Shown here in pieces: positions 2,093 to 56,725 of a DNA stretch of 64,000 nt. Made by a program: the position numbers and the translations under genes. This stretch comes from Tenacibaculum soleae (GTDB lineage: Bacteria; Bacteroidota; Bacteroidia; Flavobacteriales; Flavobacteriaceae): the NCBI RefSeq assembly GCF_001693415.1, contig NZ_MAKX01000013.1, positions 186,001-250,000 of the forward strand, read 5' to 3'. The notes beneath the pieces are model-generated. The model was not told where the DNA came from. It did no database searches and worked only from the letters and a program-made list of their open reading frames with translations. The stretch's first letter is position 1, and each line of letters begins with the position of its first letter.

Positions 2093-2109
2093 CTATTTTT
2101 AATTTAATA

Positions 2110-2374: not shown

Positions 2375-2405
2375 AACAAAACCCAGTTATTATAACTGGG
2401 TTTTA
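2375..2405. terminator. Intrinsic terminator after the PorP/SprF gene
   Basis: AAAACCCAGTTAT and ATAACTGGGTTTT form a perfect stem followed by a T-run on the minus strand. The remaining gene-free part of 2093-2421 holds only AT-rich sequence besides the porin promoter. Confidence 0.8.
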
Positions 2406-3302: not shown

Positions 3303-5210
<1,908 letters not shown>

Positions 5211-5340
5211 AATATATATTAATAAAAATTTACCACAAGAGTACTATGCTTTAATAATTTTGTAACAAAGCACTTTGCGAATCGTAATTCTACTTTATGA
5301 ATGATTAAAATAATCTAAATCCATTACTTTAAATTCATAA

Positions 5341-5372
5341 AAAAAGCTCAATCATTACAACTGAGCTTTTAT
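5341..5372. terminator. Intrinsic terminator after the 150-residue secreted protein gene
   Basis: AAAAGCTCA (5342-5350) pairs with TGAGCTTTT (5362-5370) across a short loop. An A-run on the plus strand gives a U-run in the leftward transcript. Confidence 0.7.
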
Positions 5373-5409
5373 ATATTTTAAAAGTAAAATTCAATACAGA
5401 TATAATATG

Positions 5410-5862: not shown

Positions 5863-5875
5863 AATTGAATATTAT

Positions 5876-41517: not shown

Positions 41518-42972
41518 TTGAAAACGGATAAAAATTGTACATCAAGTTTTACGATTTGTAAAGAATGTCAAGGGCAAGGTAAAAAAAGTAAAAGAGTGCG
41601 TAAAAATGTACAACTTGCTTATGAAGCGACATTGGATGCATATGAAAAATCCGATAAACAAAAAGTAGCCCCTATTCGCCCAAAGGCAGTACAACAGGCT
41701 TGTTTAAAATGTAATGGTTCAGGATTATTAGCGGTTGACAAATATCCTATAGCAGATATAGAGAATTATCCACATGTAGCTATAATTGGCGGAGGTATTG
41801 GTGGTGTAGCACTTGCTGTTGCGTGTTTGCATCGTAATATTCCGTTTACACTTTATGAACGTGATGCTAGTTTTAATTCTAGATCACAAGGTTACGGACT
41901 TACCTTGCAACAAGCTAGCAATGCTATTAAAGGGTTGGGTATTTTTAAACTGAAAGAAGGTGTTGTTTCAACAAAACATGTGGTTCATAATCCCGAAGGA
42001 AAAGTTATCGGAGAATGGGGGATGAGAAAATGGATAGATTCTAATGTTAAAAAAACTTCGAAACGAACAAATATACACATCGCCAGACAGTCTTTACGAT
42101 TTGAATTACTAGCACAATTAAGGGATACTAAATCTGTAAAATGGGGACATCAATTAATAAATTTTAAGGAATCTGAAGATGAATCAGTAACGTTGAGTTT
42201 TAAAGTTGATGGAGAAATTAAAAAAGAAAAAGCAGATTTGGTAGTAGGTGCAGACGGGATTAGAAGTACTGTTCGTAAACTTTTAATAGGTGATGATATT
42301 ACGCCATTACGTTATTTAGGTTGTATTGTGATATTAGGTATTTGTCCTTTAAAAGATATTAAAAATAGTGATAATTCTTTGTTAGATTCTGCTACTGTAT
42401 TTCAAACAGCGAATGGTAATGAACGTATTTATATGATGCCTTTTACATCAGATGCTGTTATGTGGCAACTAAGTTTTCCGATATCAGAACAAGCTGCAAA
42501 ACAATTAAGCGAAAAAGGACCTAAAGCACTTAAAGATGAAGCTTGTCGTAGAACTCCGTGGCACAATCCTATTCCACAAATTTTAGCAGCTACAGATGAA
42601 AGTAATATTTCAGGATATCCGGTGTATGATAGAGAATTATTAAAACCAGAGTTGTTATCCAAAGCAAAAAAAGTAACATTAATTGGTGATGCAGCACATC
42701 CTATGAGTCCGTTTAAAGGGCAAGGAGCTAATCAGGCTTTATTAGATGCCCTGGCCTTGGCTAGAGGAATATCTAAAGGATGTAGACCTTTATCAGAATG
42801 GAGAAAAATAGGAATAAGAGAAAGTGTATTAACTGATTTTGAAATAGAAATGATAACGCGTAGTGCATCAAAAGTACAAGGATCTGCAGAGGCTGTAAAA
42901 TTTTTACATTCTAAAGATGTGCTTCAAGAAATGAATGGCCCAAGACGACAATTTATAAATAAAAATACTTAG
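41518..42972 (+). CDS. FAD-dependent monooxygenase with N-terminal DnaJ-like zinc-finger pair
   Basis: The 484-residue protein begins with two CxxCxGxG motifs, CKECQGQG (14-21) and CLKCNGSG (62-69), as in the zinc-binding part of DnaJ. A PHBH-type flavin monooxygenase follows, with Rossmann IIGGGIGG (about 89-96), the GADGIRS motif and GDAAHPMSPFKGQGANQAL (about 390-410). The start codon is TTG, directly adjacent to the stop of the serine hydrolase, so translation is coupled. It would hydroxylate a small aromatic or similar molecule. The zinc pair suggests protein-protein contact. The combination is unusual in my reading. Confidence 0.85.
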   Translation: MKTDKNCTSSFTICKECQGQGKKSKRVRKNVQLAYEATLDAYEKSDKQKVAPIRPKAVQQACLKCNGSGLLAVDKYPIADIENYPHVAIIGGGIGGVALAVACLHRNIPFTLYERDASFNSRSQGYGLTLQQASNAIKGLGIFKLKEGVVSTKHVVHNPEGKVIGEWGMRKWIDSNVKKTSKRTNIHIARQSLRFELLAQLRDTKSVKWGHQLINFKESEDESVTLSFKVDGEIKKEKADLVVGADGIRSTVRKLLIGDDITPLRYLGCIVILGICPLKDIKNSDNSLLDSATVFQTANGNERIYMMPFTSDAVMWQLSFPISEQAAKQLSEKGPKALKDEACRRTPWHNPIPQILAATDESNISGYPVYDRELLKPELLSKAKKVTLIGDAAHPMSPFKGQGANQALLDALALARGISKGCRPLSEWRKIGIRESVLTDFEIEMITRSASKVQGSAEAVKFLHSKDVLQEMNGPRRQFINKNT

Positions 42973-43778
42973 GAAATAGAATTGATATAGCTAATTGTTT
43001 TGCTGTTAAATAAGGATGCCTTTTCTACATTAACTACATGACCACATTTTTTTAAAACTACTAAAGAAGCGTTTACATGTTTTTCAACCACATTTTTAAT
43101 AGCAGGTAAAAACAAGTGGTCTTCATCTCCCATAATATATAGCGTTGGTATTTTTAAATCTTTCATTCTAAATAATCGCAAAAGCGGATTAATTTCAGAA
43201 GTTAATTTAAACCAACGCAAAAACTCTTTTTGATAAAGTTTTTTAGCTTCGTTAACAAAAAGTAATCGCGATTTTTTATGATTTTTTTTAGGCATAATTA
43301 TAAAAGCAAAAAGCTTGTATAATAGCATATATGGCACTATTGATTTAAATAAGTTACCAACAAAAATTAAAAAACGAGAGCGTAAATTAAATTTAATAAT
43401 AGCACCTCCCATAATCATACTACTCACTAAACTTGGTTTCTTTTCAGCTAAGTTTCTAATTAAAATAGTACCCAAAGAAATACCAACAAAATGCGATTTT
43501 TTTATCTGTAAATAATCAATAACCTCTACAATATCGTCAGTAATAGCATCAAATGTGTATTTTTGATTAAATGGCGATTTTATAACTGATTTACTATCTC
43601 CATGACCGCGTAAATCAACAATTAAAACATTAAAATGTTTTTTAAAATCACGAAGTTGTTTGTACCAAATAGTGCTACTACCACCAGCACCATGTACAAA
43701 TGTTACCCATTGGGTAGAAACAGCATGTTTGTAAGAATAATAATTTAACAAATTATAGATGTTTATAAATCCGAGCAA
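42969..43778 (-). CDS. Alpha/beta hydrolase
   Basis: The 269-residue alpha/beta hydrolase has oxyanion region HGAGGS (29-34), nucleophile S101 in VGISLGT, acid in MGDEDHL (about 217) and His in CGHVVNVEKA (about 246). It is likely an esterase or C-C hydrolase. Its 3' end overlaps the convergent monooxygenase by 4 bases. It begins just upstream of the ten-gene operon's terminator and is not part of that operon. Confidence 0.88.
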   Translation of the reverse strand: MLGFINIYNLLNYYSYKHAVSTQWVTFVHGAGGSSTIWYKQLRDFKKHFNVLIVDLRGHGDSKSVIKSPFNQKYTFDAITDDIVEVIDYLQIKKSHFVGISLGTILIRNLAEKKPSLVSSMIMGGAIIKFNLRSRFLIFVGNLFKSIVPYMLLYKLFAFIIMPKKNHKKSRLLFVNEAKKLYQKEFLRWFKLTSEINPLLRLFRMKDLKIPTLYIMGDEDHLFLPAIKNVVEKHVNASLVVLKKCGHVVNVEKASLFNSKTISYINSIS

Positions 43779-43841
43779 AAATAATTAATTAAAAACTTAG
43801 AATCTTAGTTTAATGCCTTTTTAAAATAATTCTTTAAAATT

Positions 43842-43875
43842 GCAGTAAGAACCTGTGTTAAGGTTCTTACTGTAA
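43842..43875 (-). terminator. Terminator of the ten-gene operon
   Basis: CAGTAAGAACC (43843-43853) pairs perfectly with GGTTCTTACTG (43862-43872) across 8 bases. The U-run is imperfect. It follows the last gene of the operon. Confidence 0.65.
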
Positions 43876-43895
43876 TGAGTTATTATTAAGTTAAT

Positions 43896-44561
43896 TTATA
43901 TATTGAAAGTGATGATTGTATCAGCACGAATAATTTGTGTACTTCCAGGTATATAAGCAGGTTTTTGTTCAGAAAAAGTTGATTCGTCTTGCAATTCACT
44001 TTCTTTTACATTTTCACCAAAAGCATAATTTAAATTGTATTCATTTAATAAAACCTTTATCTCTGCAAATGTTCTTTTTATAAAGTTTCCATTAGTATCT
44101 TTTACCGTTGAATTTATAAAATCAGGTAAAAAACGTATAATTTGAGTATCAGAAGGAGGCACAGGCATAATATCAAACTGAATTTCGGCACTTGCGTTTA
44201 AATTCATATTGTATTTATTAGTATTCGTAGCATTTACAGGTGTTGCATACATTTTGGTGCGAAAAGCTTTTCCTTTATTTAAAACACTCGATGATTGTTG
44301 TGATAAGGATAATGATATTTTAGCTTTTGCCGTTGTTTTTGGAATTGTGTAAAAGGTAGGTTGATATCCAATTTCGCGGAGTAACTTTAAAGATGTTTCT
44401 GCATTATCAGGATCTGAATTATAAATTTCTAAGGTTTGCCTTAATGAGCCTTTGTCTAATGCGGCTTGTGCTTCACCAACACCCTCGCCAATAGAAGCTA
44501 TAAAATCTCCTAAAGGTGCAGCAAAAGCATCTTTTAAATAATCATTTGAATTGTTTGACAT
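43896..44561 (-). CDS. Operon gene 10: divergent module protein, 221 residues
   Basis: I do not recognise this protein, but it is a distant paralogue of others in the operon. The N-terminal helix reads APLGDFIASIGEGVGEAQAALD, which matches the shared helix in its AQxALD core. The strand motif is REIGYQPTFYT (about 85-95). The C-terminal core appears as NASAEIQFDIMPVPPSD (about 123-140), a weak match to the shared motif. It is followed by about 80 further residues. There is no signal peptide. It is the last gene, 4 bases after its neighbour. Confidence 0.75.
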   Translation of the reverse strand: MSNNSNDYLKDAFAAPLGDFIASIGEGVGEAQAALDKGSLRQTLEIYNSDPDNAETSLKLLREIGYQPTFYTIPKTTAKAKISLSLSQQSSSVLNKGKAFRTKMYATPVNATNTNKYNMNLNASAEIQFDIMPVPPSDTQIIRFLPDFINSTVKDTNGNFIKRTFAEIKVLLNEYNLNYAFGENVKESELQDESTFSEQKPAYIPGSTQIIRADTIITFNI

Positions 44562-44565
44562 GTTT

Positions 44566-46311
44566 TTAGTTTTTTAATGGTTTAGCAAAAATTACAATTA
44601 CTTCTTGTCCTTGAATTATTTCCGACCCTACTTCTGGTATTTGTTTAATTGCTTGTCCTTCTATAAATTTAGGATTATCTGTTGGCTGGTAAACCACATC
44701 TAATTTTAGCCCATAATTTGTGATGATTTTTCTTGCAGCTGTTTCTGTAAGCCCTATAATATTCGGAACCGTATTTTTTGATTTTATACTGGTTGTATTC
44801 GGAACAATATCAATACTTATATCACTAATTGCAGCGGCATTAATATCTTTCGCAGATTCAAAATCAACCAAACCAAATAAAGTGCCTTGAGGTCCTTTTT
44901 CTACCGTAGCTTTTAAGTTTAATGAAATGTTTGCCATTTTGAATCTAGAGTTGTCCATTTCTGCATCAGCAATTGCAATATCATTTATAATACTACTATA
45001 TACTTTTTTAGCATCTAATTTATTCGGATTCTCAGCATCAACATAACTTTGTATTTCGGTTACTTTGGTTTCTAGTTTAGAAATTTCAATTTCTTTTACC
45101 GCTGTGTTTTGAGTAAGTGTAGCTATTTCATTGTTTTTTTCAGAAACAAGTTGTTGTGATATTTTTACTTTTTCAACTAAATCATCAATAGAGTTTTGTT
45201 GTGTTTGTAAATCGTTTTTTGTTTTTTTAACTTCTAAAAAAATCGATTGTTTTTCTTTTATAAGTTCATTTTGAGTTTTTTGTAAATCCTTAATAGTGTT
45301 TGTTTTTTCTAATAGGACTTTTTTAAGTTTATCAGTTTTAGAAGTATCATTTTTTAATATTGATATTTCTTTTTTTAACATTTCTATTTCTTGACTTTTC
45401 TCAGTTAAATTGTATTGTATTATCGCTGTTTTTTCTTCGTAATTAGCAACTAATTTTTCTAATTCTTTAACACGAATAGTAAGTTCATCTTTAGTTACTT
45501 CAGAAGATTTTAAAATTTCAATTTCTTCTTGTAAATCAATCAATTTTTCGTTTTGGTTATTTAATTTTTTTAAAAGAGATTCAATTTCATTGGTTTTATC
45601 CTCTAACGTTTTTATTAGTAGCTTAACTTCTTGAGAAGTATCACCTTTATGAGCGTTATTTAGCTGTTCTTTTAAATCTGCAATTTCATTAAGACTATTA
45701 TCTAAAGATTGCTTTAATAATGACTCAGTTTCTTCATGTTCATTTAAATGTTCGTGAAGTTTTTTAAGTTGACTATCATGTTTTTCATTAACCTTTTTAA
45801 GGTCGATTTCTTGCTGCTTTGTTAAGGTGTTTAGTTTTCTGTTTTCTTCTTCTAATATTAAAAAATCTTTTTGAAAACCATATAAATAAATAGGAGAGGC
45901 AATAATTATTGAATTATTTTTTTTGATAAATAAAGATTCATCTAAAAGCCAAAGTTTCTGAAAATCAATAGCGATTTGTAAATTATCCTCATCAAAGAAG
46001 ATAGTAGGAGCTTCAGAAATAATTAAAGTTTTTTTCTGGTTAGATTTTACAATTCTAAACATTGGTAAACTTCCTTCGCTCATGCAATCTCGTACAAGTC
46101 TAGTAATCAATTCCTCTTTAGCAAGTCGAACAGGAATTTCATATGTATGAGATAATAATCCTTTTTTTGTTTCAATCCTCGTAACAAGTTTTCTCCAAGT
46201 TTTGTTTTCAATATCTAAAAACTCTATATCTAAAGTATAAGCTTTTAAAGCAGTATTATTAGCTGCTATTAAGTCGCATTTAAAAAGTAAAGAGCGGTAT
46301 TTTGTAGCCAT
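44566..46311 (-). CDS. Operon gene 9: coiled-coil and PASTA-domain protein, 581 residues
   Basis: This gene has an N-terminal beta-rich domain (1-145) and a long coiled coil (about 148-425). A module-like segment follows (about 438-504, IINDIAIADAEMD then MANISLNLKATVEKG), and then one PASTA-like domain (514-577, VPNIIGLTETAARKII and GSEIIQGQEVIVIF). PASTA domains usually bind peptidoglycan fragments outside the membrane. Here no signal peptide or membrane anchor is visible. It is 2-4 bases from both neighbours in the operon. Confidence 0.82.
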   Translation of the reverse strand: MATKYRSLLFKCDLIAANNTALKAYTLDIEFLDIENKTWRKLVTRIETKKGLLSHTYEIPVRLAKEELITRLVRDCMSEGSLPMFRIVKSNQKKTLIISEAPTIFFDEDNLQIAIDFQKLWLLDESLFIKKNNSIIIASPIYLYGFQKDFLILEEENRKLNTLTKQQEIDLKKVNEKHDSQLKKLHEHLNEHEETESLLKQSLDNSLNEIADLKEQLNNAHKGDTSQEVKLLIKTLEDKTNEIESLLKKLNNQNEKLIDLQEEIEILKSSEVTKDELTIRVKELEKLVANYEEKTAIIQYNLTEKSQEIEMLKKEISILKNDTSKTDKLKKVLLEKTNTIKDLQKTQNELIKEKQSIFLEVKKTKNDLQTQQNSIDDLVEKVKISQQLVSEKNNEIATLTQNTAVKEIEISKLETKVTEIQSYVDAENPNKLDAKKVYSSIINDIAIADAEMDNSRFKMANISLNLKATVEKGPQGTLFGLVDFESAKDINAAAISDISIDIVPNTTSIKSKNTVPNIIGLTETAARKIITNYGLKLDVVYQPTDNPKFIEGQAIKQIPEVGSEIIQGQEVIVIFAKPLKN

Positions 46312-46313
46312 AA

Positions 46314-47021
46314 TTAGTGTTTTTGAATTGATATTTTAGTAAAAACAGTTCCCACATTAATATCAATTTGTATGGTGTTTTTAGCATTATAATCTGTTGT
46401 GTCTATTTGAATTGTATTTACAGCAATTCCGTTAATATCTGTAATAACTTCTCCTTGTTTTACAAAGTTTGTATTGTGATTTAAAACGCTGTTTGTATTT
46501 AATAAAATGGTTTTATCTCTGTTATAATTAAATTCTACTAAAGCACCCGGAATTTTCTCACCAGCAGAATTAAAAATAGCAACTTCAATATCGTAAATAT
46601 TAGAAGTATTGGTTTGTTTAGGAATTGCTTCAATAATTAATTGAGGCAAACCATCATTAGGGGCAATAGCAACAAAACGACCAGAAATACTGCTGGTTAT
46701 TTTATCGGATTCAGTAGCGCTAGTTGTTTTATTTACTGGACGATAAGTCATCATAGGAGCTGGTGAATACGGCATTTCCGCCATTGAATATTTACCATAA
46801 CCTTTACTTTGATTATAAGTTCCATCGGTTGTAGAGGATGTTTCTAATTCGGTTTCTACCTGTAAGGTAAAATCTAAATATGGCAAGGTATATAAAGTAT
46901 TCGGACGTCCATATTCATCATAAGGAGCAGCATTACGCAACTGATGTTGCGCTTCATTTAAGCTTTCTGAAATTCCGAGTAGTATTTCTTTTAAGGTAAT
47001 AGATGTATTTTGTGTGCTCAT
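46314..47021 (-). CDS. Operon gene 8: beta-rich protein with a weak module helix, 235 residues
   Basis: Not recognised. The N-terminus has the helix core LKEILLGISESLNEAQHQL (about 11-29), a weak match to the shared module. A beta-rich C-terminal region (about 110-233) follows, with EVAIFNSAGEKIPGALVEFNYN, which resembles an Ig-like or CARDB/transthyretin-type beta fold. There is no signal peptide. It sits within the operon between gene 7 and gene 9. Confidence 0.7.
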   Translation of the reverse strand: MSTQNTSITLKEILLGISESLNEAQHQLRNAAPYDEYGRPNTLYTLPYLDFTLQVETELETSSTTDGTYNQSKGYGKYSMAEMPYSPAPMMTYRPVNKTTSATESDKITSSISGRFVAIAPNDGLPQLIIEAIPKQTNTSNIYDIEVAIFNSAGEKIPGALVEFNYNRDKTILLNTNSVLNHNTNFVKQGEVITDINGIAVNTIQIDTTDYNAKNTIQIDINVGTVFTKISIQKH

Positions 47022-47042
47022 GATATTTATTTGGTATGTAAA

Positions 47043-48338
47043 TTAGAATGAAAAAGGATCTTTTGTAGATTTTGTTTCCTTTTTGGTTGGAAGTTCATCT
47101 GTAAATTCTTTGACTTTTTTTGCAGTAGAAAATATCTCTGAAATATTAATTGTATTAAATCCTTTTGAAGCTTTTTCTTCTTTTTTATTGAATATTTTGT
47201 CTAAGGAATTTAACTTTAATGAAGCTTTTTCATTCTTATCTAATTTATTTAATTCATCAGAATTATTAAAAAGATTATTAACAGTTGTATTCGTTTTATT
47301 TAAATGTTTTTTTGATGTTTTGTAAAAGTTATTTACTTTGTTTAAGTTTTTATTTAAAGCATTAATATTTTCAGTATTCTTTTTTTTTGATGGTAATGGG
47401 GTTTTAAATCCGTTTTGTTGTATTTTTTTAACAAAAACTGTTTTCTTTTTATCTATTTTATTAAAAGTGTCTATTGTTTTTTCAGCAGTTTTAGTAATTG
47501 TACTTATTGTTTTAATAGTTTTAGAAAAAGAGTTGTTTATTGATGTTTCCTTTTGGGTATTAAGATTATTAGAAAGTAAATCGTTTATTTTATTTAAACT
47601 TTGAGAAACATCATTAGCTACAGTATTTACTTTTTTAATTGTTTTAGAAGTGTTATCTATAGTTTTAGTAATTTTTTTTATTTCTTCAGGAATTTTCGTT
47701 TTCTTTTCATCTACATGAATAAGTTTTTTAGAAAATTTAGCCAGATTTTTATCAACTTTATTTATATTTTTTAAAGCATTACTACTAATGTTTGTAACTT
47801 TTTTAGCTGTCTTTTTTACATTATAAAAAGTTTTAAGTAAAGCTTTTGATTGCTTCTTTTTACTAGAAAATTCTTCTTTTTTATTTTCTTTTTTAGATAA
47901 TAGATTTGTAGATTTTTTTTGTGTTTTTTCAATGAAATCTACATTAAAAAAATCCTTTTCCTTTCTATTTAGATTACTATTTTCTTTAACTTTATTTTTT
48001 CTTCTTTCAAGAGTTTTTAGCTTTTTTTTTGCTTCTTTATACTCTTCTTTTCTTTTTTGATAAATAGATTTTATCTCAGTATCATAGCTCTTGTTGGTAG
48101 AAGAATGCTCTTCTGTTTTACCAGTAAGAGCATTCATGTTTTGTTCTAGTTCTTTTTGCTCCTCTAATAAGCTTTTTAAATTAACATTGGACGCAGCAAT
48201 ATCTTCTAACGATGTATCATTAGTGGCAGGTTGTATTAAATCTGATAAAGAAAGTTTTTCGTTTTCAGCAGCTTCATCTTTTACCGATTTTTTAGCCGGT
48301 TCTTCTTGCTTTATAAACTGTTTCCAATGTTTAGCCAT
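47043..48338 (-). CDS. Operon gene 7: lysine-rich coiled-coil protein, 431 residues
   Basis: Not recognised. Nearly all of the 431 residues are highly charged, low-complexity and helical, with lysine and asparagine excess. A repeated spacing of hydrophobic residues (KTIKTISTITKTAEKTIDTFNK) suggests a long coiled coil or scaffold. There is no signal peptide or TM helix. It starts 2 bases after gene 6. It may be a filament or linker part of the assembly. That role is only a guess. Confidence 0.75.
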   Translation of the reverse strand: MAKHWKQFIKQEEPAKKSVKDEAAENEKLSLSDLIQPATNDTSLEDIAASNVNLKSLLEEQKELEQNMNALTGKTEEHSSTNKSYDTEIKSIYQKRKEEYKEAKKKLKTLERRKNKVKENSNLNRKEKDFFNVDFIEKTQKKSTNLLSKKENKKEEFSSKKKQSKALLKTFYNVKKTAKKVTNISSNALKNINKVDKNLAKFSKKLIHVDEKKTKIPEEIKKITKTIDNTSKTIKKVNTVANDVSQSLNKINDLLSNNLNTQKETSINNSFSKTIKTISTITKTAEKTIDTFNKIDKKKTVFVKKIQQNGFKTPLPSKKKNTENINALNKNLNKVNNFYKTSKKHLNKTNTTVNNLFNNSDELNKLDKNEKASLKLNSLDKIFNKKEEKASKGFNTINISEIFSTAKKVKEFTDELPTKKETKSTKDPFSF

Positions 48339-48340
48339 TT

Positions 48341-48826
48341 TTAAGGAGTGTTTAGTTTGTTTCTTTTATCTTCAAGTTCAGTTGCTATCATTGCACGTAA
48401 GCGCTGTTCAAACACAGGTGGATTTGGTACTGCTACCAACTTGGTGCGTAACATTGAACTACCTTCTGCTGAGTATTGATATTTTTGTGAAAAACTAGCA
48501 GAAACAGATGCGCTAACAGCAACAAAGCCTACATTAACGCCAGCACTTACAGACGTAGAAACTCCAAATTCTGTAGTTTGACTCATAGAAACAGACATTT
48601 TCATTTCTAAAACAGTATCTACATATTGATAAAATGTAGGCGTAAAACCAAGGGAAAGCAAACTATATTCTTCACCACCCATATCCACTTTTGTATCTAC
48701 CAACTCTTTTGCCAATTCCATAGATACTTTATCTAAGGCACGTTGTGCTTGAGCGATTCCTATACCAAGTGTTTTTACCATTTCTGGTAAAGGTGCATTT
48801 AAAATTTCTTTCGTTATACGTCCCAT
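48341..48826 (-). CDS. Operon gene 6: minimal module protein, 161 residues
   Basis: This 161-residue protein shows the shared module with little else. Helix: NAPLPEMVKTLGIGIAQAQRALD (about 10-32). Strand: LLSLGFTPTFYQYVDTVLEMKMS (about 55-77). A Ser/Val-rich hydrophobic stretch follows. The C-terminal motif is KYQYSAEGSSMLRTKLVAVPNP (about 114-135). There is no signal peptide. It is close to gene 4 in size and arrangement and is probably the basic building block of the family. Confidence 0.8.
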   Translation of the reverse strand: MGRITKEILNAPLPEMVKTLGIGIAQAQRALDKVSMELAKELVDTKVDMGGEEYSLLSLGFTPTFYQYVDTVLEMKMSVSMSQTTEFGVSTSVSAGVNVGFVAVSASVSASFSQKYQYSAEGSSMLRTKLVAVPNPPVFEQRLRAMIATELEDKRNKLNTP

Positions 48827-48843
48827 TTTAGTATGTTATTAAA

Positions 48844-49794
48844 TTATGATTCTGATTCTTCTCGCGCAATTTCCATTTGTTGTTGAATGCGTTCTTCTAA
48901 GATTGCTGGTGGTGGAATAGGAACTAACTTGGTTTGTAGAATACTAGAACCTTCTGCTGAATAACTAAATTTTTGTGAAAACCCTGCATTTACTTGTGTT
49001 GTGGTAACAGTTCTGTTATTGTTATACTTAGCTCTAGCTTTGAAAATATTAACACTTGCACCACCACTATTGTTTTTACTTTCTGTTTTACGATCATAAG
49101 AAAATGATGAAGAACCTTCTCTTGTAAATTTGATAGAAATACTAACACGTATCATAGTATCTACAAATTGATAAAAAGTAGGAGAAAAACCTAGCTCTAA
49201 CATAGATAAACGCTGTGGTAACATAACTTCTCTAGTCCCTCTACCAGGAATAACCATTTTTTTACCAGGAACAATTACTGGAACAGCTTTTCCATTAGTC
49301 CCATCCAGCTCAATATATGTATCTCCTTTGTATTGGTACCATTTAGTATTGGCTTTATCCCTATAATAAACTTCTGGATTTTTTTGACTATCAGGCGTAA
49401 AAGTTGTACCAGTATCTAAAGGAGCGGCACTTACATCAATAACCTCTCTATCATAACCCGCCTCTGTATCACCATTAAATTTAGCTTCAATAGCAGCTTG
49501 ATATGCTTGGTCGCTATTTGAGTTGTATAGTTCTACCGCATCTGTTAGTTGTACTTTTTCTTTACCAAAAAAGACACGACTATCTTTAAAATTTATAAAT
49601 TCTTGTTCGTTTCCATTACTATCTTTTATAGTGTCTTTAACAGCTTTAAGTCCTCCCATCATTTCAGCAACTTCGATAGAATTAGAGTCTAATGCCATTT
49701 GTGCTTCGGCTATGGAAAAAGCCATTTGTCGAATCATATCGCCCATCGGAACGTCTAATAATTCTTGTCCTATACTAGGATTTTTTCTAAACAT
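48844..49794 (-). CDS. Operon gene 5: module protein with insert after the helix, 316 residues
   Basis: This 316-residue paralogue has the helix DVPMGDMIRQMAFSIAEAQMALDSNSI (split here for length: core AEAQMALDSNSI, about 27-38). A polar insert of about 150 residues follows (about 45-195). The strand is LELGFSPTFYQFVDTM (about 199-214). The C-terminal motif KFSYSAEGSSILQTKLVPIP (about 276-295) ends with PPP and a final helix. The insert is not recognised. There is no signal peptide. Confidence 0.8.
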   Translation of the reverse strand: MFRKNPSIGQELLDVPMGDMIRQMAFSIAEAQMALDSNSIEVAEMMGGLKAVKDTIKDSNGNEQEFINFKDSRVFFGKEKVQLTDAVELYNSNSDQAYQAAIEAKFNGDTEAGYDREVIDVSAAPLDTGTTFTPDSQKNPEVYYRDKANTKWYQYKGDTYIELDGTNGKAVPVIVPGKKMVIPGRGTREVMLPQRLSMLELGFSPTFYQFVDTMIRVSISIKFTREGSSSFSYDRKTESKNNSGGASVNIFKARAKYNNNRTVTTTQVNAGFSQKFSYSAEGSSILQTKLVPIPPPAILEERIQQQMEIAREESES

Positions 49795-49805
49795 ATTTTT
49801 TGTTT

Positions 49806-50342
49806 TTATTTGTCTTTTGTTATTGTTGATTTTAATATTTCATAATATACATCTGGTGCTGGTAGCGATACAATTTTTGCAGCAATAGAAGAGGAAGCCT
49901 CTGCTGAAACAGAAAACTTACGTGCATAATGAGCAGATATAGAAATTCCGAACATTTGGGTTTCTGTACTGTCATTATTTGCACTAAAACTATTGTTGGC
50001 ATTGTTTGCACTTGCGTTAGTATTGGTATTTGAGTTAGAACTGTTTCCGTAGTTAAAACCTAAAGAACCACCATAACTTTCAGATTCTGCTACTGAGAAC
50101 TCCATTTTCACTTCAAAAGAAGCTTCTGTAAAAGCATAAAAAGTAGGAGCAAAGCCAAGACTTATTAGGTTGTGTTCTTCGTCACCTACACCAATTTTAA
50201 TAGTTGCCATTTCGTTCGCTAAACGAATAGAATTAGCATCTAATGCAGCTTGTGCATTGGCAATAGAAGCACCTAGTTTCTCTAACATAAATGGTAGAGG
50301 TGCATTGGTGATTTGTTGTATAACTTGTGGTGCTGCGCTCAT
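49806..50342 (-). CDS. Operon gene 4: short module protein, 178 residues
   Basis: This 178-residue paralogue has helix core ANAQAALDANSIRLA (about 28-42), strand LISLGFAPTFYAFTEASFEV (about 59-78) and an Asn/Ser-rich linker (about 95-125). The C-terminal motif is ARKFSVSAEASSSIAAKIVS (about 138-157) with a PAP end. It has no signal peptide. It is near gene 6 in length and is separated from gene 3 by 5 bases. Confidence 0.8.
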   Translation of the reverse strand: MSAAPQVIQQITNAPLPFMLEKLGASIANAQAALDANSIRLANEMATIKIGVGDEEHNLISLGFAPTFYAFTEASFEVKMEFSVAESESYGGSLGFNYGNSSNSNTNTNASANNANNSFSANNDSTETQMFGISISAHYARKFSVSAEASSSIAAKIVSLPAPDVYYEILKSTITKDK

Positions 50343-50347
50343 AATTA

Positions 50348-52126
50348 TTAGCTTCCAGAAGTTGTATTACCAGTTAATGATTCAATGTAGTTTTCTAAAC
50401 CAGTAGGAGGTGGAACAGAAATCATGCGAGCAGAAACAGAAGCGTTTCCTTCTACAGATACTCCAAATTGTCTTGCATAACGTACATCTAAAGAACCGCT
50501 TAAGGCAGAAATTTTTGGGTCTTTAATACTTTTTAAGTCAGATTTTGCAAAATATTCACTATTGATTACTTTGTGTATGTTTAACGAGTCGTTATTATTA
50601 CTGGAGTTTTGGGTGTTAGACGATTTATCTTCAATCGTTATGTCTTCAGTATCGTTAGAAAATAGGGTATATTCTATTTTGGCATCTTTTCTTAGAGAAT
50701 ACACCACATCGCCAGAAACTTGAGCGTAAAACTTATTCGTATTATCTAATTTTGTTTTTACTTCAGCTAGACTATTTATAGTCTCGTTTATATTAACATC
50801 ACTACCAGATCCAATTACAAAACTGAGTGTAGTATTAGCAGCAGTTGCTGCGTATTTTTGCATAATACCAGATGTTGCTGTAGCCCAATTTGTAACTATG
50901 GAAGCAGAGTTGCTTTGGCTAAAATCGCCGCCTTCAACAAAAATATATTCGTTGCCATTAGTATCAATTTCAATTACAGCCTTTCGGTAATCAGCATCAT
51001 TTTTATTGTCACCAACATTAGTTTTAGCTTTTTGCTCACCTTCAGAATTAATTTCTATTACCTGAGTTTCATTAACACCTAAAGCTATCAAATAATTTTT
51101 TACCGTATTGGCTCTTTTTAGCCCCAAATCATTATTAAAATTATCGCTACTAACACTATCTGTATGACCTGTTACTTTAACAGTAACATCAGCATCGTTT
51201 AGCATAATAAAAGCTAAAGCTCTAAGTTTATCTTTTAGGTTTTCTGTGTTTTTTGGACTTGTACCTTTGCTGTACGTAAAATCAATAGCATGGTGTTTCG
51301 AAAAATCGAAAAAAACAGTTAGTTTGTCTTCATGTTGTATACCAAACTTAAAGCTACTGTTAACGATAACATTTAAATTGTCTGCTAAATTTGTTTTATC
51401 TATAGTTATATTATTAGCATTAGTAGTTCCTTTAATTTTAATACTTACATTAGAGTAGTCTTTAAATTTAAGAATACCTGTATCTTCTGCATAATAATTT
51501 AGCATGGACAACATACCAAAGCCATTATAATTATGTGTTCTTATATCATTGCTGCTACTAGCGTTAACAACATCTTTAGTTTCAATTATTTTAGAATCTA
51601 CTCTCTGTATTTCTGAGTCTGACGATAAGTTTTCAGCAGTTTCTTCAAGCCTGTTAATGCTACCAGTTTCTTTACTAGTATTTACAGTACTTTGATTTAC
51701 TTTAAGTGTGTGTTCATTAGATAAAGTTGTCCAATATTTTCTACTACTTTTAAACTCTTTATACTTTTCTTCCTGATAGCTATTTTCAATATCTTGAATA
51801 TGTTTTTCTGTATAGCCTTTCTTTTTACTAGCGTCATATTCTATACTTAAATCAACTTCAATGTCTTCTTGAATTGTCATTTTTAAGCTAATAGAAGCAG
51901 ATACATCTGCGTATTCGAAAGAATAAAAAGCAGGTTGAAACCCTAATTCTAATAGAGATTTATTACCAACCTTTGTTTCAGAAAGCCTGGTAATTTGTTT
52001 AACGGAATTGGTATCTAAGCGCTCTTGCGCGTCAGCAATACCTAAGGCTAGCCCAGTTACAATACTACTAACATCTACGTTTTGTAGTATTTTGGCACCT
52101 TGATCAAGTGTGTTAATGTTTGCCAT
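50348..52126 (-). CDS. Operon gene 3: module protein carrying an OmpA-like domain, 592 residues
   Basis: This 592-residue paralogue has helix core IADAQERLDTNS (30-41) and strand LLELGFQPAFYSF (58-70). A linker and coiled region run to about 265. An OmpA-like domain (about 268-388) contains TGHTDSVSSDNF, KRANTVKNYLIALG and NDADYRKAVIEI. A further region leads to the C-terminal module motif ARQFGVSVEGNASVSARMIS (551-570) and PPP. OmpA-like domains normally bind peptidoglycan outside the membrane. No signal peptide is present here. It is the largest module member. Confidence 0.88.
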   Translation of the reverse strand: MANINTLDQGAKILQNVDVSSIVTGLALGIADAQERLDTNSVKQITRLSETKVGNKSLLELGFQPAFYSFEYADVSASISLKMTIQEDIEVDLSIEYDASKKKGYTEKHIQDIENSYQEEKYKEFKSSRKYWTTLSNEHTLKVNQSTVNTSKETGSINRLEETAENLSSDSEIQRVDSKIIETKDVVNASSSNDIRTHNYNGFGMLSMLNYYAEDTGILKFKDYSNVSIKIKGTTNANNITIDKTNLADNLNVIVNSSFKFGIQHEDKLTVFFDFSKHHAIDFTYSKGTSPKNTENLKDKLRALAFIMLNDADVTVKVTGHTDSVSSDNFNNDLGLKRANTVKNYLIALGVNETQVIEINSEGEQKAKTNVGDNKNDADYRKAVIEIDTNGNEYIFVEGGDFSQSNSASIVTNWATATSGIMQKYAATAANTTLSFVIGSGSDVNINETINSLAEVKTKLDNTNKFYAQVSGDVVYSLRKDAKIEYTLFSNDTEDITIEDKSSNTQNSSNNNDSLNIHKVINSEYFAKSDLKSIKDPKISALSGSLDVRYARQFGVSVEGNASVSARMISVPPPTGLENYIESLTGNTTSGS

Positions 52127-52145
52127 ATTTAATTGTTTTTAATGG

Positions 52146-52691
52146 TTAAAAAGGAGAAATTCCCTCGGGCAAATCCATGGCTATTTTTGGATTTACAGAT
52201 TCTTTTCTCACTATAAAATAATTGTGTTTTTTTTGTAATCGGGTTACCTGATCTTTGTTTATTTTATAACCTCTTAAAAGCCAGTTTAACAATTCATCAG
52301 TTATAGGATGTTTTCCTTTTCCTATTTCCTTTTGTGCGTTTGTTAATAATGTTTTAGCTTCTTCTTGTTCTTCTTTCAAGATGTGTTGTATGGCTTGTCT
52401 TTCACAAACAAAAGCATTGTGTTTTTTTACCAATACATTGGTTTCTTTATCAGCTAAAAAATCTCTGTAGTTTTTACAAAAAGATATAACTTCATCATAA
52501 GAACCTAGTTGCTCTAAAGCTTCCATAACACATTGACTATAATGCTGAAAAAAGAGTTCGCTATCTTTTTGTGTTTGTGTTAATCGTAAAGCCTCTTTAT
52601 AATGACGTAAAGCTTCTTTATAATTTTTATCTAAGGCGTGCATTTTACCACGTTCGGCAATTCTAAAATGCAACATTTTTTTATTTTCCAT
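52146..52691 (-). CDS. Operon gene 2: TPR-like protein, 181 residues
   Basis: This 181-residue protein has a tetratricopeptide pattern at the N-terminus (GKMHALDKNYKEALRHYKEAL, about 14-34). Two or three further helical pairs follow to about 130. There is no signal peptide. TPR proteins commonly act as adaptor scaffolds. It follows gene 1 by 3 bases and precedes the module genes. Similar to small chaperone-like TPR proteins, but nothing more specific can be said. Confidence 0.8.
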   Translation of the reverse strand: MENKKMLHFRIAERGKMHALDKNYKEALRHYKEALRLTQTQKDSELFFQHYSQCVMEALEQLGSYDEVISFCKNYRDFLADKETNVLVKKHNAFVCERQAIQHILKEEQEEAKTLLTNAQKEIGKGKHPITDELLNWLLRGYKINKDQVTRLQKKHNYFIVRKESVNPKIAMDLPEGISPF

Positions 52692-52694
52692 AAG

Positions 52695-53753
52695 TTAAAT
52701 AAGTGTTGGTTCGCAGTTTAGTAGTACTAATTGAGCATATAAATAATTGGCTATTAAATCAGGTATTTTAGTACTGCTTTTCCAGTGATTTGTATTTTCA
52801 TTAAAAGAACTTACATCAATAAATTGAGCTAGTATTTTTTTAACAGCTGCATGATCTTTAATTTCATCAACAACTAATTCTCTTGTTGTTTTAAAATTAT
52901 TTTCTACAGAAATTTCAATACCAATTTCATTACATTTTTTTATTGTTTTTTGAGCAGATTGATTACTAATACGATCAAAAAGAGTAATAGGTAAGTGTTG
53001 TTTTAAATCAGATAAAATAGTTGAAGGCATACCAATTTTATCTGTTAAAAAAGAAACATGTTGTGTGTTATTAACATCAAAAGAAGTTAAATTAATAGTA
53101 ACTAATTGATGTGTTTGGTTAATTACACGAATTCCTGTTTTAGATTGATGTTCTCTCCAAATGTTACTGCTTTCAGTAAAAGTTAAATCTTTTAAAATAT
53201 ATGCCCCATTTACTAAGGTTTCTAGTGGTTTGTTAATTTTAGTAGTAAGTCTTTTTAAATCATTTTTAGCAAATTTATCAGATATATAAATACTAAATAG
53301 ATCATTTCTAGGGTTAGAATAACAAACCAAAGCATCTAAACGATCTTGTAATGCAACTGCGGTAGCTTTAGAAACACCACCTAAAACAATACCAGGCTGA
53401 GCGAGTAACATGTTTAAAGCTTCTGATTGTTTACAACCTAAAAATTCAGATAATTGATGAATTACATTAGGTAACTTAATAATATCATCAAAATAAATAC
53501 TGATTTCCACTTGTTCTTTACTGATTTCTACTTTTTCTTTTTCATCAGTTACTTGTACATCTAAACCAAGTTTAGTTAATGTTGACGCTGCTTTTTCGGC
53601 TAAATCTAAATCTATTTTTTGAAATAAAACAGAAGGCGCATTGTACAACATTTTTAAAATGAATTCTTGTGGCATTTTAAAAGAGTCGGCTAATAATTTT
53701 GATACACTAGGATTTGCGGTTCCAATAGAATTGATAATTACAGTGTTTTCCAT
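52695..53753 (-). CDS. Operon gene 1: protein with L7/L12-like repeats, 352 residues
   Basis: This 352-residue protein contains three to four repeats of about 65-70 residues, clearest at 4-68, 84-145 and 216-283. The pattern matches the C-terminal domain of ribosomal protein L7/L12: a strand, a helix with SKLLADSF or HQLSEFLGCK, a middle L...LP or AQPGIVL segment, then helix SKATAVALQDRLDAL. No signal peptide or TM helix. It opens the operon just downstream of the divergent control region. Function is unknown. The fold assignment is by pattern and spacing only. Confidence 0.65.
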   Translation of the reverse strand: MENTVIINSIGTANPSVSKLLADSFKMPQEFILKMLYNAPSVLFQKIDLDLAEKAASTLTKLGLDVQVTDEKEKVEISKEQVEISIYFDDIIKLPNVIHQLSEFLGCKQSEALNMLLAQPGIVLGGVSKATAVALQDRLDALVCYSNPRNDLFSIYISDKFAKNDLKRLTTKINKPLETLVNGAYILKDLTFTESSNIWREHQSKTGIRVINQTHQLVTINLTSFDVNNTQHVSFLTDKIGMPSTILSDLKQHLPITLFDRISNQSAQKTIKKCNEIGIEISVENNFKTTRELVVDEIKDHAAVKKILAQFIDVSSFNENTNHWKSSTKIPDLIANYLYAQLVLLNCEPTLI

Positions 53754-53991: not shown

Positions 53992-54666
53992 ATGATTACA
54001 TCTTTATTATTAGCAATTACAGTTATTGCTTTCGGTATTTATATTTATAAGTACCCACCAAAAAAACCAATACATACATCTAAAACCAGTATTTGTTTAG
54101 ATTATTCATCTGAACCAATGAATCAATTAAGTGTACCTTTAGTTCATGAAATGGTAAATGGTTATAAAAACAATCAATTAGCAAAGATTAACAGTAGTTT
54201 AAATATTAATGATGCTCATTCCATTAGGTTTGAATTAGAAACTCTGAAAGCGTTTATTTACCATACAGAAATGAATGCAAAAAAACATAAAGTACCTAGT
54301 AAAAGTTTAGGAATACGTATGTATTATTCTCGTTATCCTGAAAAGGAAACATGGAAAAGACCTTTTACTGATTTGTCAGATTTTTTAGGAAACTCTACTA
54401 CTGAAAAATATGAAAAATTACATACTTTAGTTATGATTCCAACTATTCGTAGAGGAGAAGTAGATTTTGACTTTAACCCATTAGACGAAAAAACATATAC
54501 TACAAGTTTAAAGAAAAATGAAGCGTATTTAAATAATGGGGCACAAACCAGAACAGCAGCATTAAGTGGAAGTAAAAGCTCAAGAAGTTCTTCTAGTAAT
54601 ACAGGGTCTCAAAATCATGGAAGTTTAATACCACCTGTAATCGGTTCAGGTGAAGGTTTCTCTTAA
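53992..54666 (+). CDS. Single-TM protein of the regulatory cluster, 224 residues
   Basis: Not recognised. One transmembrane helix at the N-terminus (about 3-18) is followed by a soluble domain containing LGIRMYYSRYPEK and LHTLVMIPTIRRGEVDFDFNP. A Ser/Gly-rich C-terminal tail (about 190-224) follows. The domain occurs, as I recall, in Bacteroidota next to 7TM-kinase-regulator sets, but no function is known to me. It is the first gene of a four-gene rightward unit divergent from the ten-gene operon. Confidence 0.7.
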   Translation: MITSLLLAITVIAFGIYIYKYPPKKPIHTSKTSICLDYSSEPMNQLSVPLVHEMVNGYKNNQLAKINSSLNINDAHSIRFELETLKAFIYHTEMNAKKHKVPSKSLGIRMYYSRYPEKETWKRPFTDLSDFLGNSTTEKYEKLHTLVMIPTIRRGEVDFDFNPLDEKTYTTSLKKNEAYLNNGAQTRTAALSGSKSSRSSSSNTGSQNHGSLIPPVIGSGEGFS

Positions 54667-54674
54667 AAAAAAAC

Positions 54675-55328
54675 ATGTATAAATTATATCCATATATGAA
54701 TGATATATTACTAGGGTTAGAGTTTTTTTCAGCCCTAGTTGCTTTGCTTTATATTAATAAATTAAAAAAAACGTACTGGAAATGGTTTGCAGTGTATTTA
54801 GTATTTATTTTTATCCAAGAGTTTTTTTGGAAATTTAATTCGTCTTTTTTAAGTATAAGAAAACAAAGTTATTATGCTTTTATAGGTATTCCTTTTCAAT
54901 ATTTATTTCTCTATTGGCTATATGCTTATAAATCTCTAAAAAACAAAAAACTCTTTTTAATTTTATCTTTCATATATTTATTAACTTTTATTCCTTTGGA
55001 ATTATATAATAAAAAAATAATAACACTTTATTCTATAAATTTAACAATGGGAAGTATTATATTAATTTTCTTAGTTGTATTGGAATTTATTAAGCAAATT
55101 AAAACGGATAATATCCTTGAATTTAAAGAGAATAAAATGTTTTATATAAATATAGCGATTGTATTATTTTACGTAGGTACTTATCCGTTTACTGCTTTTT
55201 ATTATGAGTTAGCAAAAACGCCATATATAAGAATTTGGAATGCATATTATTTATATTTTTTAATAGCTAATTGTATGATGTATTTATTATTTATAGCTTC
55301 TTTTATATGGGGAAAACACAAATCATAA
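54675..55328 (+). CDS. Multi-TM membrane protein of the regulatory cluster, 217 residues
   Basis: The 217-residue protein has about six to seven transmembrane helices with no recognised active motif. The layout, and the kinase that follows, suggest a membrane sensor or signal-transducing partner. Its 3' end overlaps the kinase start by about 22 bases, so translation is coupled. The exact topology cannot be fixed by eye. Confidence 0.7.
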   Translation: MYKLYPYMNDILLGLEFFSALVALLYINKLKKTYWKWFAVYLVFIFIQEFFWKFNSSFLSIRKQSYYAFIGIPFQYLFLYWLYAYKSLKNKKLFLILSFIYLLTFIPLELYNKKIITLYSINLTMGSIILIFLVVLEFIKQIKTDNILEFKENKMFYINIAIVLFYVGTYPFTAFYYELAKTPYIRIWNAYYLYFLIANCMMYLLFIASFIWGKHKS

Positions 55329-56083
55329 TAACTTTAATTTTATTTAATGTTATTTTTATTACTTTTTTAGGAGCTATATTCATTTTTATTAGAGAGTATA
55401 AAAAGAAAAAGAAAGCGCATTTACAGCAAATTTACGCTATTGATGAAACACATAAAGAAGAGTTATTAGAAACTCAACTTGAAATTCAAACCCAAACAAT
55501 GCAGTATATAGGGCAAGAAATTCATGATAATATTGGACAAAAATTAACATTAGCAAGTATATACACACAACAATTAATTTTTGAAAATAAAGCTCCTGAA
55601 ATTAACGAAAGTATTAAAGGTATCAATGACATTATTAATCAATCATTGCAAGAATTAAGGCAATTGTCAAAATCTTTAACCGATGACTCTATTAAAAATA
55701 ATTCAATTGATAAACTTATTGAAAATGAATGTAAAAAGGTAAATGATTTAAAAAAATGTAATGCTCAGTTTTCGAAACATATCGATATCGAGTTAGATTC
55801 TTATCAAATTAAAAGTATCTTACTAAGAATCACTCAAGAGTTCCTTCAAAATAGTATAAAACACTCGCAGTGTAAGAATATTTTTATTTCACTACATATT
55901 TCTAATACTATTATACGTTTTATATTAGAAGATGATGGTATTGGTTTTAAATCTGAAGCAGTAAAATCAAATGGTATAGGACTTCAAAATATTAGAAAAA
56001 GAACTGAATTAATTGGAGGTAATATATTATTAGAAAGTGTTGAAAAGGTAGGCACAAAATTAACCATTGAAATCCCCATATAA
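55307..56083 (+). CDS. NarL-type sensor histidine kinase
   Basis: The protein is about 258 residues long from the ATG at 55307. One N-terminal transmembrane helix (about 5-27) is followed by a HisKA_3 dimerisation domain with phosphoacceptor His in GQEIHDNIGQK (about residue 72). A HATPase domain follows, with the N-box NSIKH and G-box DDGIGFK, and ends with GTKLTIEIP. No sensing domain is present, so it probably receives its signal from the membrane protein before it. The earlier TTG at 55271 was rejected because it lies inside the upstream gene and adds only a few residues. Confidence 0.9.
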   Translation: MGKTQIIITLILFNVIFITFLGAIFIFIREYKKKKKAHLQQIYAIDETHKEELLETQLEIQTQTMQYIGQEIHDNIGQKLTLASIYTQQLIFENKAPEINESIKGINDIINQSLQELRQLSKSLTDDSIKNNSIDKLIENECKKVNDLKKCNAQFSKHIDIELDSYQIKSILLRITQEFLQNSIKHSQCKNIFISLHISNTIIRFILEDDGIGFKSEAVKSNGIGLQNIRKRTELIGGNILLESVEKVGTKLTIEIPI

Positions 56084-56725
56084 ATGAAAAAAACTATTGT
56101 TATTATTGACGATCATATTTTAATAGCACAAGCATTAAGTAATATTATTTCAAATTTTGAAGAATTTGAAGTTTTATATGTTTGTGAAAACGGAAAAGAT
56201 TTTCAAGATAAAATTAATAGTAAAGGAGTTCCTGATATTGTTTTATTAGACATTAGTATGCCAGTTATGGATGGGTTTGAAACAGCTAAATGGATTAAAG
56301 AAACACATAAAGGTATTTTAATTATGGCTTTAAGCATGCAAGATGATGAATCTAGCTTAATTAAAATGATTAAAAATGGTGCAAAAGGCTATCTTCTAAA
56401 AAATGTATATCCAACCGATTTAAAAAAAGCACTTAAAAAACTCATTGAAAAAGGGCGTTTTTTTCCAGAATGGGCTTCTAGTAAAATTTTTGACAGTATT
56501 AGTGATGGTTCTGAAGCTAATCAAAAAATAAAATTAACTGACCGTGAAATAGAGTTCTTAAAATACACAGTTACCGAAATGAACTACAGGGAGATTTCTG
56601 AAAAAATGTTTTGCAGCCCACGAACTATAGAAAACTATAGAGATAGTTTATTTGAAAAATTAGAATTAAAAACTAGAGTAGGCTTAGCTGTATATGCTTT
56701 AAAAAATGGATTTATAAATGGTTAA
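56084..56725 (+). CDS. NarL/LuxR-type response regulator
   Basis: The 213-residue protein has a receiver domain with DDH (9-11), phosphoacceptor D56 in VLLDISMP and conserved KNV (Lys) near 105. The LuxR-type HTH at about 148-210 contains LTDREIEFLKYT and MFCSPRTIENYRDSLFEKL. The kinase stop and the ATG of this gene abut, so they are one unit. It is the obvious candidate regulator for the divergent ten-gene operon. That link rests on position only. Confidence 0.93.
   Translation: MKKTIVIIDDHILIAQALSNIISNFEEFEVLYVCENGKDFQDKINSKGVPDIVLLDISMPVMDGFETAKWIKETHKGILIMALSMQDDESSLIKMIKNGAKGYLLKNVYPTDLKKALKKLIEKGRFFPEWASSKIFDSISDGSEANQKIKLTDREIEFLKYTVTEMNYREISEKMFCSPRTIENYRDSLFEKLELKTRVGLAVYALKNGFING

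What the first reader, a model, noticed from the sequence alone, without database searches (positions are those of the whole stretch)
43896..53753. Ten-gene operon of leaderless paralogues: candidate undescribed multi-protein system
Ten genes run leftward with gaps of about 2 to 21 bases and one clear terminator at the end. At least five products (genes 3, 4, 5, 6, 10) share one module, and genes 8 and 9 show weaker traces. The other partners are an L7/L12-like repeat protein, a TPR protein and a lysine-rich coiled coil. None has a signal peptide, yet two carry domains normally found outside the cytoplasm (OmpA-like and PASTA). I do not recognise any known operon of this composition. No tube, sheath, baseplate, capsid or terminase genes were seen, so it does not look like a standard injection system or phage. 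A large assembly of co-evolved subunits is the simplest inference.
Basis: partly seen in the sequence, partly recalled or inferred. Interest (0 to 1): 0.9.

Follow-up and report, generated by a model that had tools for sequence, protein, structure and literature searches.

The report
Ten-gene leaderless cell-wall-binding protein assembly
A rare set of ten genes, kept in the same order in distantly related bacteria, seems to build one large protein assembly from five related parts that carries cell-wall-binding pieces but has no export signals; what it does is unknown, and its nearest relatives are also uncharacterised.

Summary
Ten leftward genes (43896-53753) sit 2-21 bases apart. Five products share one module; none of the ten shows a hydrophobic leader. 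The operon was found in 23 further loci; 21 of the 24 have all ten genes in the same order and the other three are cut by contig ends. Flanking genes are not generally conserved and few genomes carry it (6 of 116 in the genus; 4 of 395 phylum genomes have the module). A five-gene relative lies on a Sphaerotilus plasmid and in an unnamed family of the same phylum.

The module is a distant relative of the uncharacterised family DUF2589: both halves match, 0 of 200 column shuffles each; five unrelated families do not. In gene 3 an OmpA domain with an invariant motif sits inside the module's hairpin loop, and this 440-residue insert has been swapped between operons as a cassette.

Best reading: a leaderless, non-enzymatic, wall-binding particle used in microbial conflict. 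The conserved unit is well supported; the function is inference (about 0.35). No sign of a phage, gas vesicle or contractile system.

The parts
52695..53753 (-). g1, 352 aa, repeats resembling the ribosomal L7/L12 C-terminal domain
   Evidence: Pfam L12 in 9 of 18 homologues, best 6.2e-6; in the genus found in 6 of 116 genomes, the five module carriers plus G534, whose g1 locus is identical to the operon locus L048 (50 of 50 60-mers)
52146..52691 (-). g2, 181 aa, TPR-like; the most constrained gene (dN/dS 0.04)
   Evidence: Pfam TPR_2 5.5e-5, below cut-off
50348..52126 (-). g3, 592 aa: module split by a ~440-residue insert that holds an OmpA-type domain; insert swapped between operons
   Evidence: OmpA E 7.7e-12, 14 of 15 homologues; G-x-T-D...N..L...R invariant in 15 of 15; cassette swap
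49806..50342 (-). g4, 178 aa, module protein with a low-complexity hairpin loop
   Evidence: phmmer to g6 1.3e-30
48844..49794 (-). g5, 316 aa, module protein with an insert between helix and first strand (101-172 residues between the two motifs in the 17 of 24 homologues that could be measured)
48341..48826 (-). g6, 161 aa, the minimal module: N-terminal helix, long beta hairpin, C-terminal helix in a low-confidence model
   Evidence: alignment of 25; AF2 model, pLDDT 55
47043..48338 (-). g7, 431 aa, lysine-rich (20-26% K in intact homologues) coiled-coil-like protein with a conserved W-K/T-x-F/L motif near its N-terminus; fast-evolving
   Evidence: intact ORF between g6 and g8 in 22 of 23 other loci, a fragment in L045; dN/dS 0.36-0.37
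46314..47021 (-). g8, 235 aa, beginning weakly like the module, Big_1-like end
   Evidence: Big_1 in 3 of 13, best 0.0024
44566..46311 (-). g9, 581 aa: N-terminal domain without a family, coiled coil, conserved domain, C-terminal PASTA
   Evidence: PASTA in 13 of 13 homologues
43896..44561 (-). g10, 221 aa: module plus C-terminal diverged PASTA-like domain
   Evidence: phmmer to g6 1.2e-14; hhalign to the PASTA end of g9 92%, E 4.9e-7; no PASTA match by Pfam
43839..43876 (.). 16-pair hairpin after g10, possible terminator

Best explanation
The operon encodes one heteromeric, non-enzymatic protein particle put together in the cytoplasm. Five paralogous helix-hairpin-helix subunits (distant DUF2589 relatives) form its body; coiled coils (g7, g9), the L12-like repeats (g1) and the TPR-like protein (g2) scaffold or assist assembly. 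The hairpin loop of g3 carries an OmpA domain and g9/g10 end in PASTA domains, so the particle has several peptidoglycan-binding points. As none of the ten has a visible export signal, the particle meets cell wall only when a membrane is breached, most likely on release from lysed producers. The swapped insert of g3 is the part that differs between strains, as a recognition part would. I take it to be a wall-targeting weapon or cargo carrier in microbial conflict. Shown: conserved unit, paralogy, DUF2589 kinship, wall-binding domains with an invariant motif, cassette swap, no visible leader, no enzyme family over cut-off. Inferred: one particle, release by lysis, antagonistic role.
For: Ten genes in constant order in 21 of 24 loci, the rest cut by contig ends, with differing flanks. 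All ten under purifying selection against the near relative L039, dN/dS 0.04-0.36. Sporadic distribution. OmpA in 14 of 15 g3 and PASTA in 13 of 13 g9; OmpA residues G, T, D, N, L, R invariant in 15 of 15 although inserts of the other type are only 12-36% identical to the window's by segment. Insert swap: relative L038 keeps g3's module halves at 80% and 94% but its middle at 17-29%, while remote operons share the window's middle at 61-69%; AU tests p 5e-48 and 2e-4. No leader seen. Neighbours: a CHAP + PG_binding_1 protein ends 12 bases before g1 in the Lutibacter locus L049; some DUF2589 clusters have CHAP, M15, patatin, subtilase, trypsin, TIR or SpvB/TcdB-like genes close by.
Against: No complex was shown; both AF2 models are poor. 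Neighbouring genes were picked by eye for scanning (20 proteins) with no background control, and I saw no hydrolase of this kind adjoining the operon in most of the loci printed (9 of 22 with flanks). The period-2 hairpin pattern that would suit a pore is strong within g6 (z 14.6 among related sequences) but not exceptional against shuffled whole proteins (mean z 0-1.8, up to 12 sequences a family). Release by lysis is untested; an intracellular role explains the same data.
Confidence: 0.35

Rival explanations
1. Intracellular defence complex: the assembly stays in the cytoplasm, its OmpA/PASTA domains sense DAP-containing wall fragments or precursors (or wall damage during phage attack), and the paralogous modules pass this on by polymerising, ending in growth arrest or death.
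For: No leader; sporadic distribution with differing flanks; swapped recognition-like insert; two DUF2589 clusters lie near ThsB-type TIR or trypsin genes. Kaur et al. 2020 (PMC7159879, passages seen) report OmpA and PASTA domains in iSTAND conflict systems.
Against: No NTPase, TIR, nuclease or protease family over cut-off in the ten genes; PADLOC gave only weak matches (PD-T4-6 in 3 of 25 g6 members, best 5e-4, and on g9's PASTA stretch, 6e-5); no killing domain identified.
Confidence: 0.3
2. A structural intracellular polymer: shell, tube or cytoskeleton-like scaffold built from module subunits, with no role in conflict.
For: Several paralogous small subunits plus coiled coils; no enzyme family over cut-off.
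Against: Not homologous to gas-vesicle protein GvpA (score 9.1, reached by 53 of 60 shuffles); does not explain two kinds of wall-binding domain or the swapped insert.
Confidence: 0.15
3. Cell-surface or matrix proteins exported by an unrecognised Sec-independent route.
For: OmpA, PASTA and Big_1-like domains are usually extracytoplasmic (domains; usual place: recalled).
Against: No leader or membrane segment by hydropathy, save one g8 homologue; no secretion family found in the operon.
Confidence: 0.1
4. Cargo or accessory of a contractile injection system encoded elsewhere in the genome.
For: Phage-sheath matches in 4 of 6 carriers against 24 of 110 other genomes of the genus, Fisher p 0.029 uncorrected; only 7 of 116 pass Pfam's cut-off (two of them carriers, G067 and G072).
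Against: The window's own genome (99.99% complete) and carrier G068 have no sheath match, and VipB is absent from all 116.
Confidence: 0.05

Closest known systems
DUF2589 (PF11655) and its three-gene clusters in Bacteroidota
   Same: Same layout by alignment: N-terminal helix region, strand, variable segment, strand, C-terminal helix region; halves match independently. Close gene clusters of a module protein, a second related protein and a helical one.
   Different: No DUF2589 match by HMMER at E<=1 in any of the ten; five module paralogues instead of one to three; OmpA, PASTA, L12-like and TPR partners not seen by eye in the triplets (not scanned). DUF2589 itself has no known function: one paper in the held library, in passing.
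Five-gene clusters on the Sphaerotilus sulfidivorans plasmid and in family f32
   Same: Two module proteins, a g8-like protein and a coiled-coil protein in one operon.
   Different: No OmpA, PASTA, L12 or TPR match at E<=0.05 in the ten proteins of two such clusters; a ~100-residue unknown protein comes first.
iSTAND / VMAP conflict systems (Kaur et al. 2020, PMC7159879; passages seen)
   Same: OmpA and PASTA domains in a sporadic multi-gene system.
   Different: No STAND, MoxR or vWA match in the ten genes; their wall-binding domains typically follow a membrane segment, not seen here.
Gas vesicle protein GvpA
   Same: alpha-beta-beta-alpha order (GvpA's recalled; the module's from a low-confidence model).
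   Different: No sequence relation.

Membership tests
DUF2589 (PF11655) | match over Pfam's gathering score | tested here: not met
   no DUF2589 match at E<=1 for g1-g10
DUF2589 superfamily | profile-profile homology over both halves, colinear | tested here: met
   whole 44.8 v shuffle max 20.4, 0 of 150, reversed 19.2; N half 24.8 v 14.7 and C half 30.8 v 16.8, 0 of 200 each (aligned cores 41 and 24 columns); controls GvpA, D3, g1, g2, s1 score 9-14, inside their shuffles
DUF2589 triplet system | second (D2) and third (D3) partner genes | tested here: inconclusive
   D2 is related to the module (32.2 v 23.4, 0 of 150); g8-D2 2.5% and no D3 counterpart seen
Trypco2 (PF19631) | Pfam match in g8 or g9 | tested here: not met
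   none at E<=1; own genome has no match
Contractile injection system / T6SS / tailocin | sheath, tube or VipB in the operon or the genome | tested here: not met
   no such family in the ten, apart from a tape-measure match of g9's coiled coil at 0.0061; own genome has no PF04984 or PF05943 match
Gas vesicle | GvpA homology | tested here: not met
iSTAND/VMAP ternary conflict system | STAND or MoxR NTPase, vWA or VMAP domain | tested here: not met
   none in the ten genes; the rest of the genome not examined
PD-T4-6 (PADLOC) | full-profile match including the kinase part (kinase nature recalled) | tested here: not met
   weak matches in 3 of 25 g6 members (window protein: profile 302-408 of 433) and of g9's PASTA stretch to another PD-T4-6 profile; no kinase family in the ten
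beta-pore-forming toxin | amphipathic transmembrane hairpin and a known PFT fold | tested here: inconclusive
   period-2 pattern in g6 not exceptional overall; several pore toxins among the listed fold matches but best E of the list 1.3 and model pLDDT 55
OmpA-like peptidoglycan-binding domain | Pfam match and DAP-binding Asp/Arg (residue roles recalled) | tested here: met
   14 of 15 at E<=0.05, D323 and R338 invariant in 15 of 15; PDB relatives include peptidoglycan-associated lipoprotein; binding itself not tested

The most novel reading that the evidence does not exclude
A new class of protein machine: a self-assembling, leaderless particle built from DUF2589-superfamily subunits whose hairpin loops are display sites, with exchangeable peptidoglycan-recognition cassettes, and of which the DUF2589 gene triplets are the minimal form. 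It would be neither phage-derived nor a secretion system, and would give the first function to a scattered family.
Probability: 0.35. Interest if true: 0.85.

Novelty: new variant of a known kind. Interest (0 to 1): 0.62.

Why it matters
It ties an unannotated ten-gene operon to DUF2589, a family with no known function, and turns both into a testable question. The cassette swap inside a hairpin loop points to the part under exchange, and the invariant wall-binding motif predicts a ligand. If the particle reading holds, it is a non-phage, non-secreted wall-targeting machine; if the intracellular reading holds, it is a bacterial sensor of wall fragments.

Tried and rejected
Family libraries gave no family over its cut-off for the module. 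PADLOC PD-T4-6 dropped: 3 of 25 members, partial. Two AF2 runs on g6 (36 and 81 sequences) were poor (pLDDT 42.7, 55.1). PDB: no match at E<=0.001, and none of 197 re-aligned chains at Z>=5, which excludes no fold. BFVD: one match at E<=0.001, A0A516MP19, unnamed viral protein, E 2.1e-5, TM 0.44, rmsd 10; three scans of viral contigs and three searches of phage records found no relative, so it stays a lead. Gas vesicle and contractile-system ideas tested and dropped. g9's middle domain against the short clusters' counterpart failed (49 of 150 shuffles reach it).

Two-component cassette: the four divergent genes 53992-56725 also stand, in the same order, beside a DUF2589 triplet in another genus (L138), and a diverged set beside one in the own genus (L133). 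I first took this as strong evidence of shared function, but the cassette's first gene has matches, mostly weak and partial, in 72 of 349 family genomes, and none of ten such loci that I fetched, all with the whole cassette, has a module, DUF2589 or operon gene in the stretch held (repeated because one search's print was cut). Among the 10-gene loci only the window and its two near relatives L038 and L039 show the whole cassette within the flanks held (L045 has a weaker kinase-regulator pair). I keep it as suggestive.

Limits: wide searches outside the phylum were one genome scan, plasmids, phages and viral contigs. Paper searches behind 'not described'. PMC10907252 was seen in passages and not used.
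Full report
OBSERVATION. In transcription order: g1 L12-like repeats, g2 TPR-like, g3 module + OmpA, g4, g5 and g6 module, g7 lysine-rich coiled coil, g8, g9 coiled coil + PASTA, g10 module + PASTA-like end. BLAST and phmmer inside the set confirm g3, g4, g5, g6 and g10 as paralogues. g8 is at most a weak relative, g9 is not one. Operon G+C is that of the window, 0.299 against 0.289 for the rest.

CONSERVED UNIT. The genome belongs to a genus whose named loci are Tenacibaculum (G068's contig has the length, 2,820,326 bases, of Tenacibaculum sp. AHE14PA). A profile of the five paralogues hits 5 of 147 relatives including the window's genome, all in the own genus, 1 of 35 genera. The single protein g6 finds 21 named loci: Tenacibaculum, Kordia, Dokdonia, Lutibacter, Flavobacterium, Crocinitomix, a Sediminibacterium MAG and unnamed Flavobacteriaceae/Flavobacteriales. 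21 of 24 have all ten genes in the same order; in the other three (L045, L051, L056) the missing genes lie past contig ends, and L045, a low-coverage MAG, has only a fragment of g7. Of the flanking genes, seven similarity groups recur in three or four loci, mostly close relatives, and none is general. g1 is found in 6 of 116 genus genomes: the five module carriers plus G534, whose locus is identical to operon locus L048. The g6 profile hits 4 of 395 genomes of the phylum: own plus three of family f32. Against L039 all ten genes have dN/dS 0.04-0.36.

SHORT FORM. A Sphaerotilus sulfidivorans plasmid and the f32 genomes (probably green sulfur bacteria, my guess from content) carry a five-gene cluster: a ~100-residue protein, two module proteins, a g8-like protein and a coiled-coil protein; Pfam finds no OmpA, PASTA, L12 or TPR in two of these clusters. 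In a second draw of f32, 1 of 61 genomes, the centre genome itself, had it. No relative was found in phage records or viral contigs.

WHAT THE MODULE IS. By HMMER it matches no family over its cut-off. Profile-profile comparison shows a distant relation to DUF2589: score 44.8 against a maximum of 20.4 in 150 column shuffles and 19.2 reversed; the N and C halves match separately and in order, 0 of 200 shuffles each, over cores of 41 and 24 columns. Five unrelated families (GvpA, the triplets' helical protein D3, g1, g2, s1) score 9-14, inside their shuffles. The DUF2589 partner protein D2 is also related to the module (32.2 against 23.4). DUF2589 is in 18 of 296 phylum genomes, often as part of a gene triplet. 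The better AF2 model gives helix 12-44, strands 65-85 and 114-133, helix 137-158, at mean pLDDT 55: topology only.

WALL-BINDING PARTS. OmpA is found in 14 of 15 g3 proteins and PASTA in 13 of 13 g9. In the OmpA domain G320, T322, D323, N331, L334 and R338 are invariant in 15 of 15; that the Asp and Arg bind diaminopimelate in such domains is recalled. None of the ten shows a leader by hydropathy.

CASSETTE SWAP. g3 of L038, the window's nearest relative by g6 (94%) and g2 (96%), has module halves 80% and 94% identical to the window's but a middle of 17-29%; L039, L045, L052 and L062 share the window-type middle at 61-78%, although in L045, L052 and L062 g9 is only 30-38% identical. On the tree of six other genes the window groups with L038 and L039, and a clade of the four window-type rows tested (window, L039, L052, L062) is rejected (p 5e-48); on the insert tree a clade of window, L038 and L039 is rejected (p 2e-4) (quick tree for the first, LG+G4 without mixture for both; the groups were named after seeing the identities, and long branches are present). 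The insert sits in the hairpin loop of the module.

NEIGHBOURS. In the Lutibacter locus a CHAP + PG_binding_1 protein ends 12 bases before g1. Next to or near DUF2589 clusters Pfam confirms CHAP (L132), patatin and M15 (L134), subtilase (L135, 8 bases from the triplet), SpvB/TcdB (L139), trypsin (L116), ThsB-type TIR (L119), and an endonuclease (L121, opposite strand). I chose 20 proteins by eye for scanning and have no background rate; other DUF2589 loci (L117, L118, L133, L137, L138, L140) showed none by eye.

MECHANISM. Shown: a conserved, selected, sporadic unit of module paralogues with coiled coils and wall-binding domains, no visible leader, no enzyme family over cut-off, one exchanged insert. 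Inferred: they form one particle; since wall binding is conserved and export signals are not seen, the particle acts where wall becomes reachable, most simply after lysis; the exchanged insert sets specificity. I rate this wall-targeting conflict particle at 0.35 and an intracellular wall-fragment or phage-attack sensor at 0.3. A contractile system is not needed: the own genome has no sheath or VipB match, although sheath matches are commoner among carriers (4 of 6 against 24 of 110, p 0.029 uncorrected).

NOVELTY. In the held library DUF2589 appears in one paper, in passing, PF11655 in none, and no paper described this composition in the searches made. I file it as a new, expanded variant of an uncharacterised domain family rather than as a proven new class.

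Noticed in passing
53992-56725 (+): Divergent four-gene cassette: small protein, membrane protein, histidine kinase, response regulator; also beside a DUF2589 triplet in another genus (L138) and, diverged, in L133.
   Followed up: partly
L058, about 4.5 kb after g10: Caspase-like gene (by eye) near the Crocinitomix operon.
   Followed up: no
L114 (Vibrio sp. 16 plasmid) 921-6537: HlyD-type adaptor and peptidase-containing ABC exporter genes upstream of two DUF2589 stretches.
   Followed up: no
L139 2622-6818: SpvB/TcdB-like gene about 230 bases after a DUF2589 triplet.
   Followed up: no
47043-48338 (-): g7 and its intact homologues share a short motif near the N-terminus (W-K/T-x-F/L after a basic start) although the rest diverges fast; could be a docking peptide.
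   Followed up: no
g6 model m41684e264948: Unnamed viral protein A0A516MP19 matches the low-confidence g6 model over 164 columns (Foldseek E 2.1e-5).
   Followed up: partly
42969-43778 (-): Alpha/beta hydrolase on the same strand 117 bases after g10, beyond the hairpin; among the flanks compared only L039 has a relative there.
   Followed up: partly
G028, G067, G072, G534: Four of six operon carriers in the genus also have a phage-sheath match, against 24 of 110 others.
   Followed up: partly
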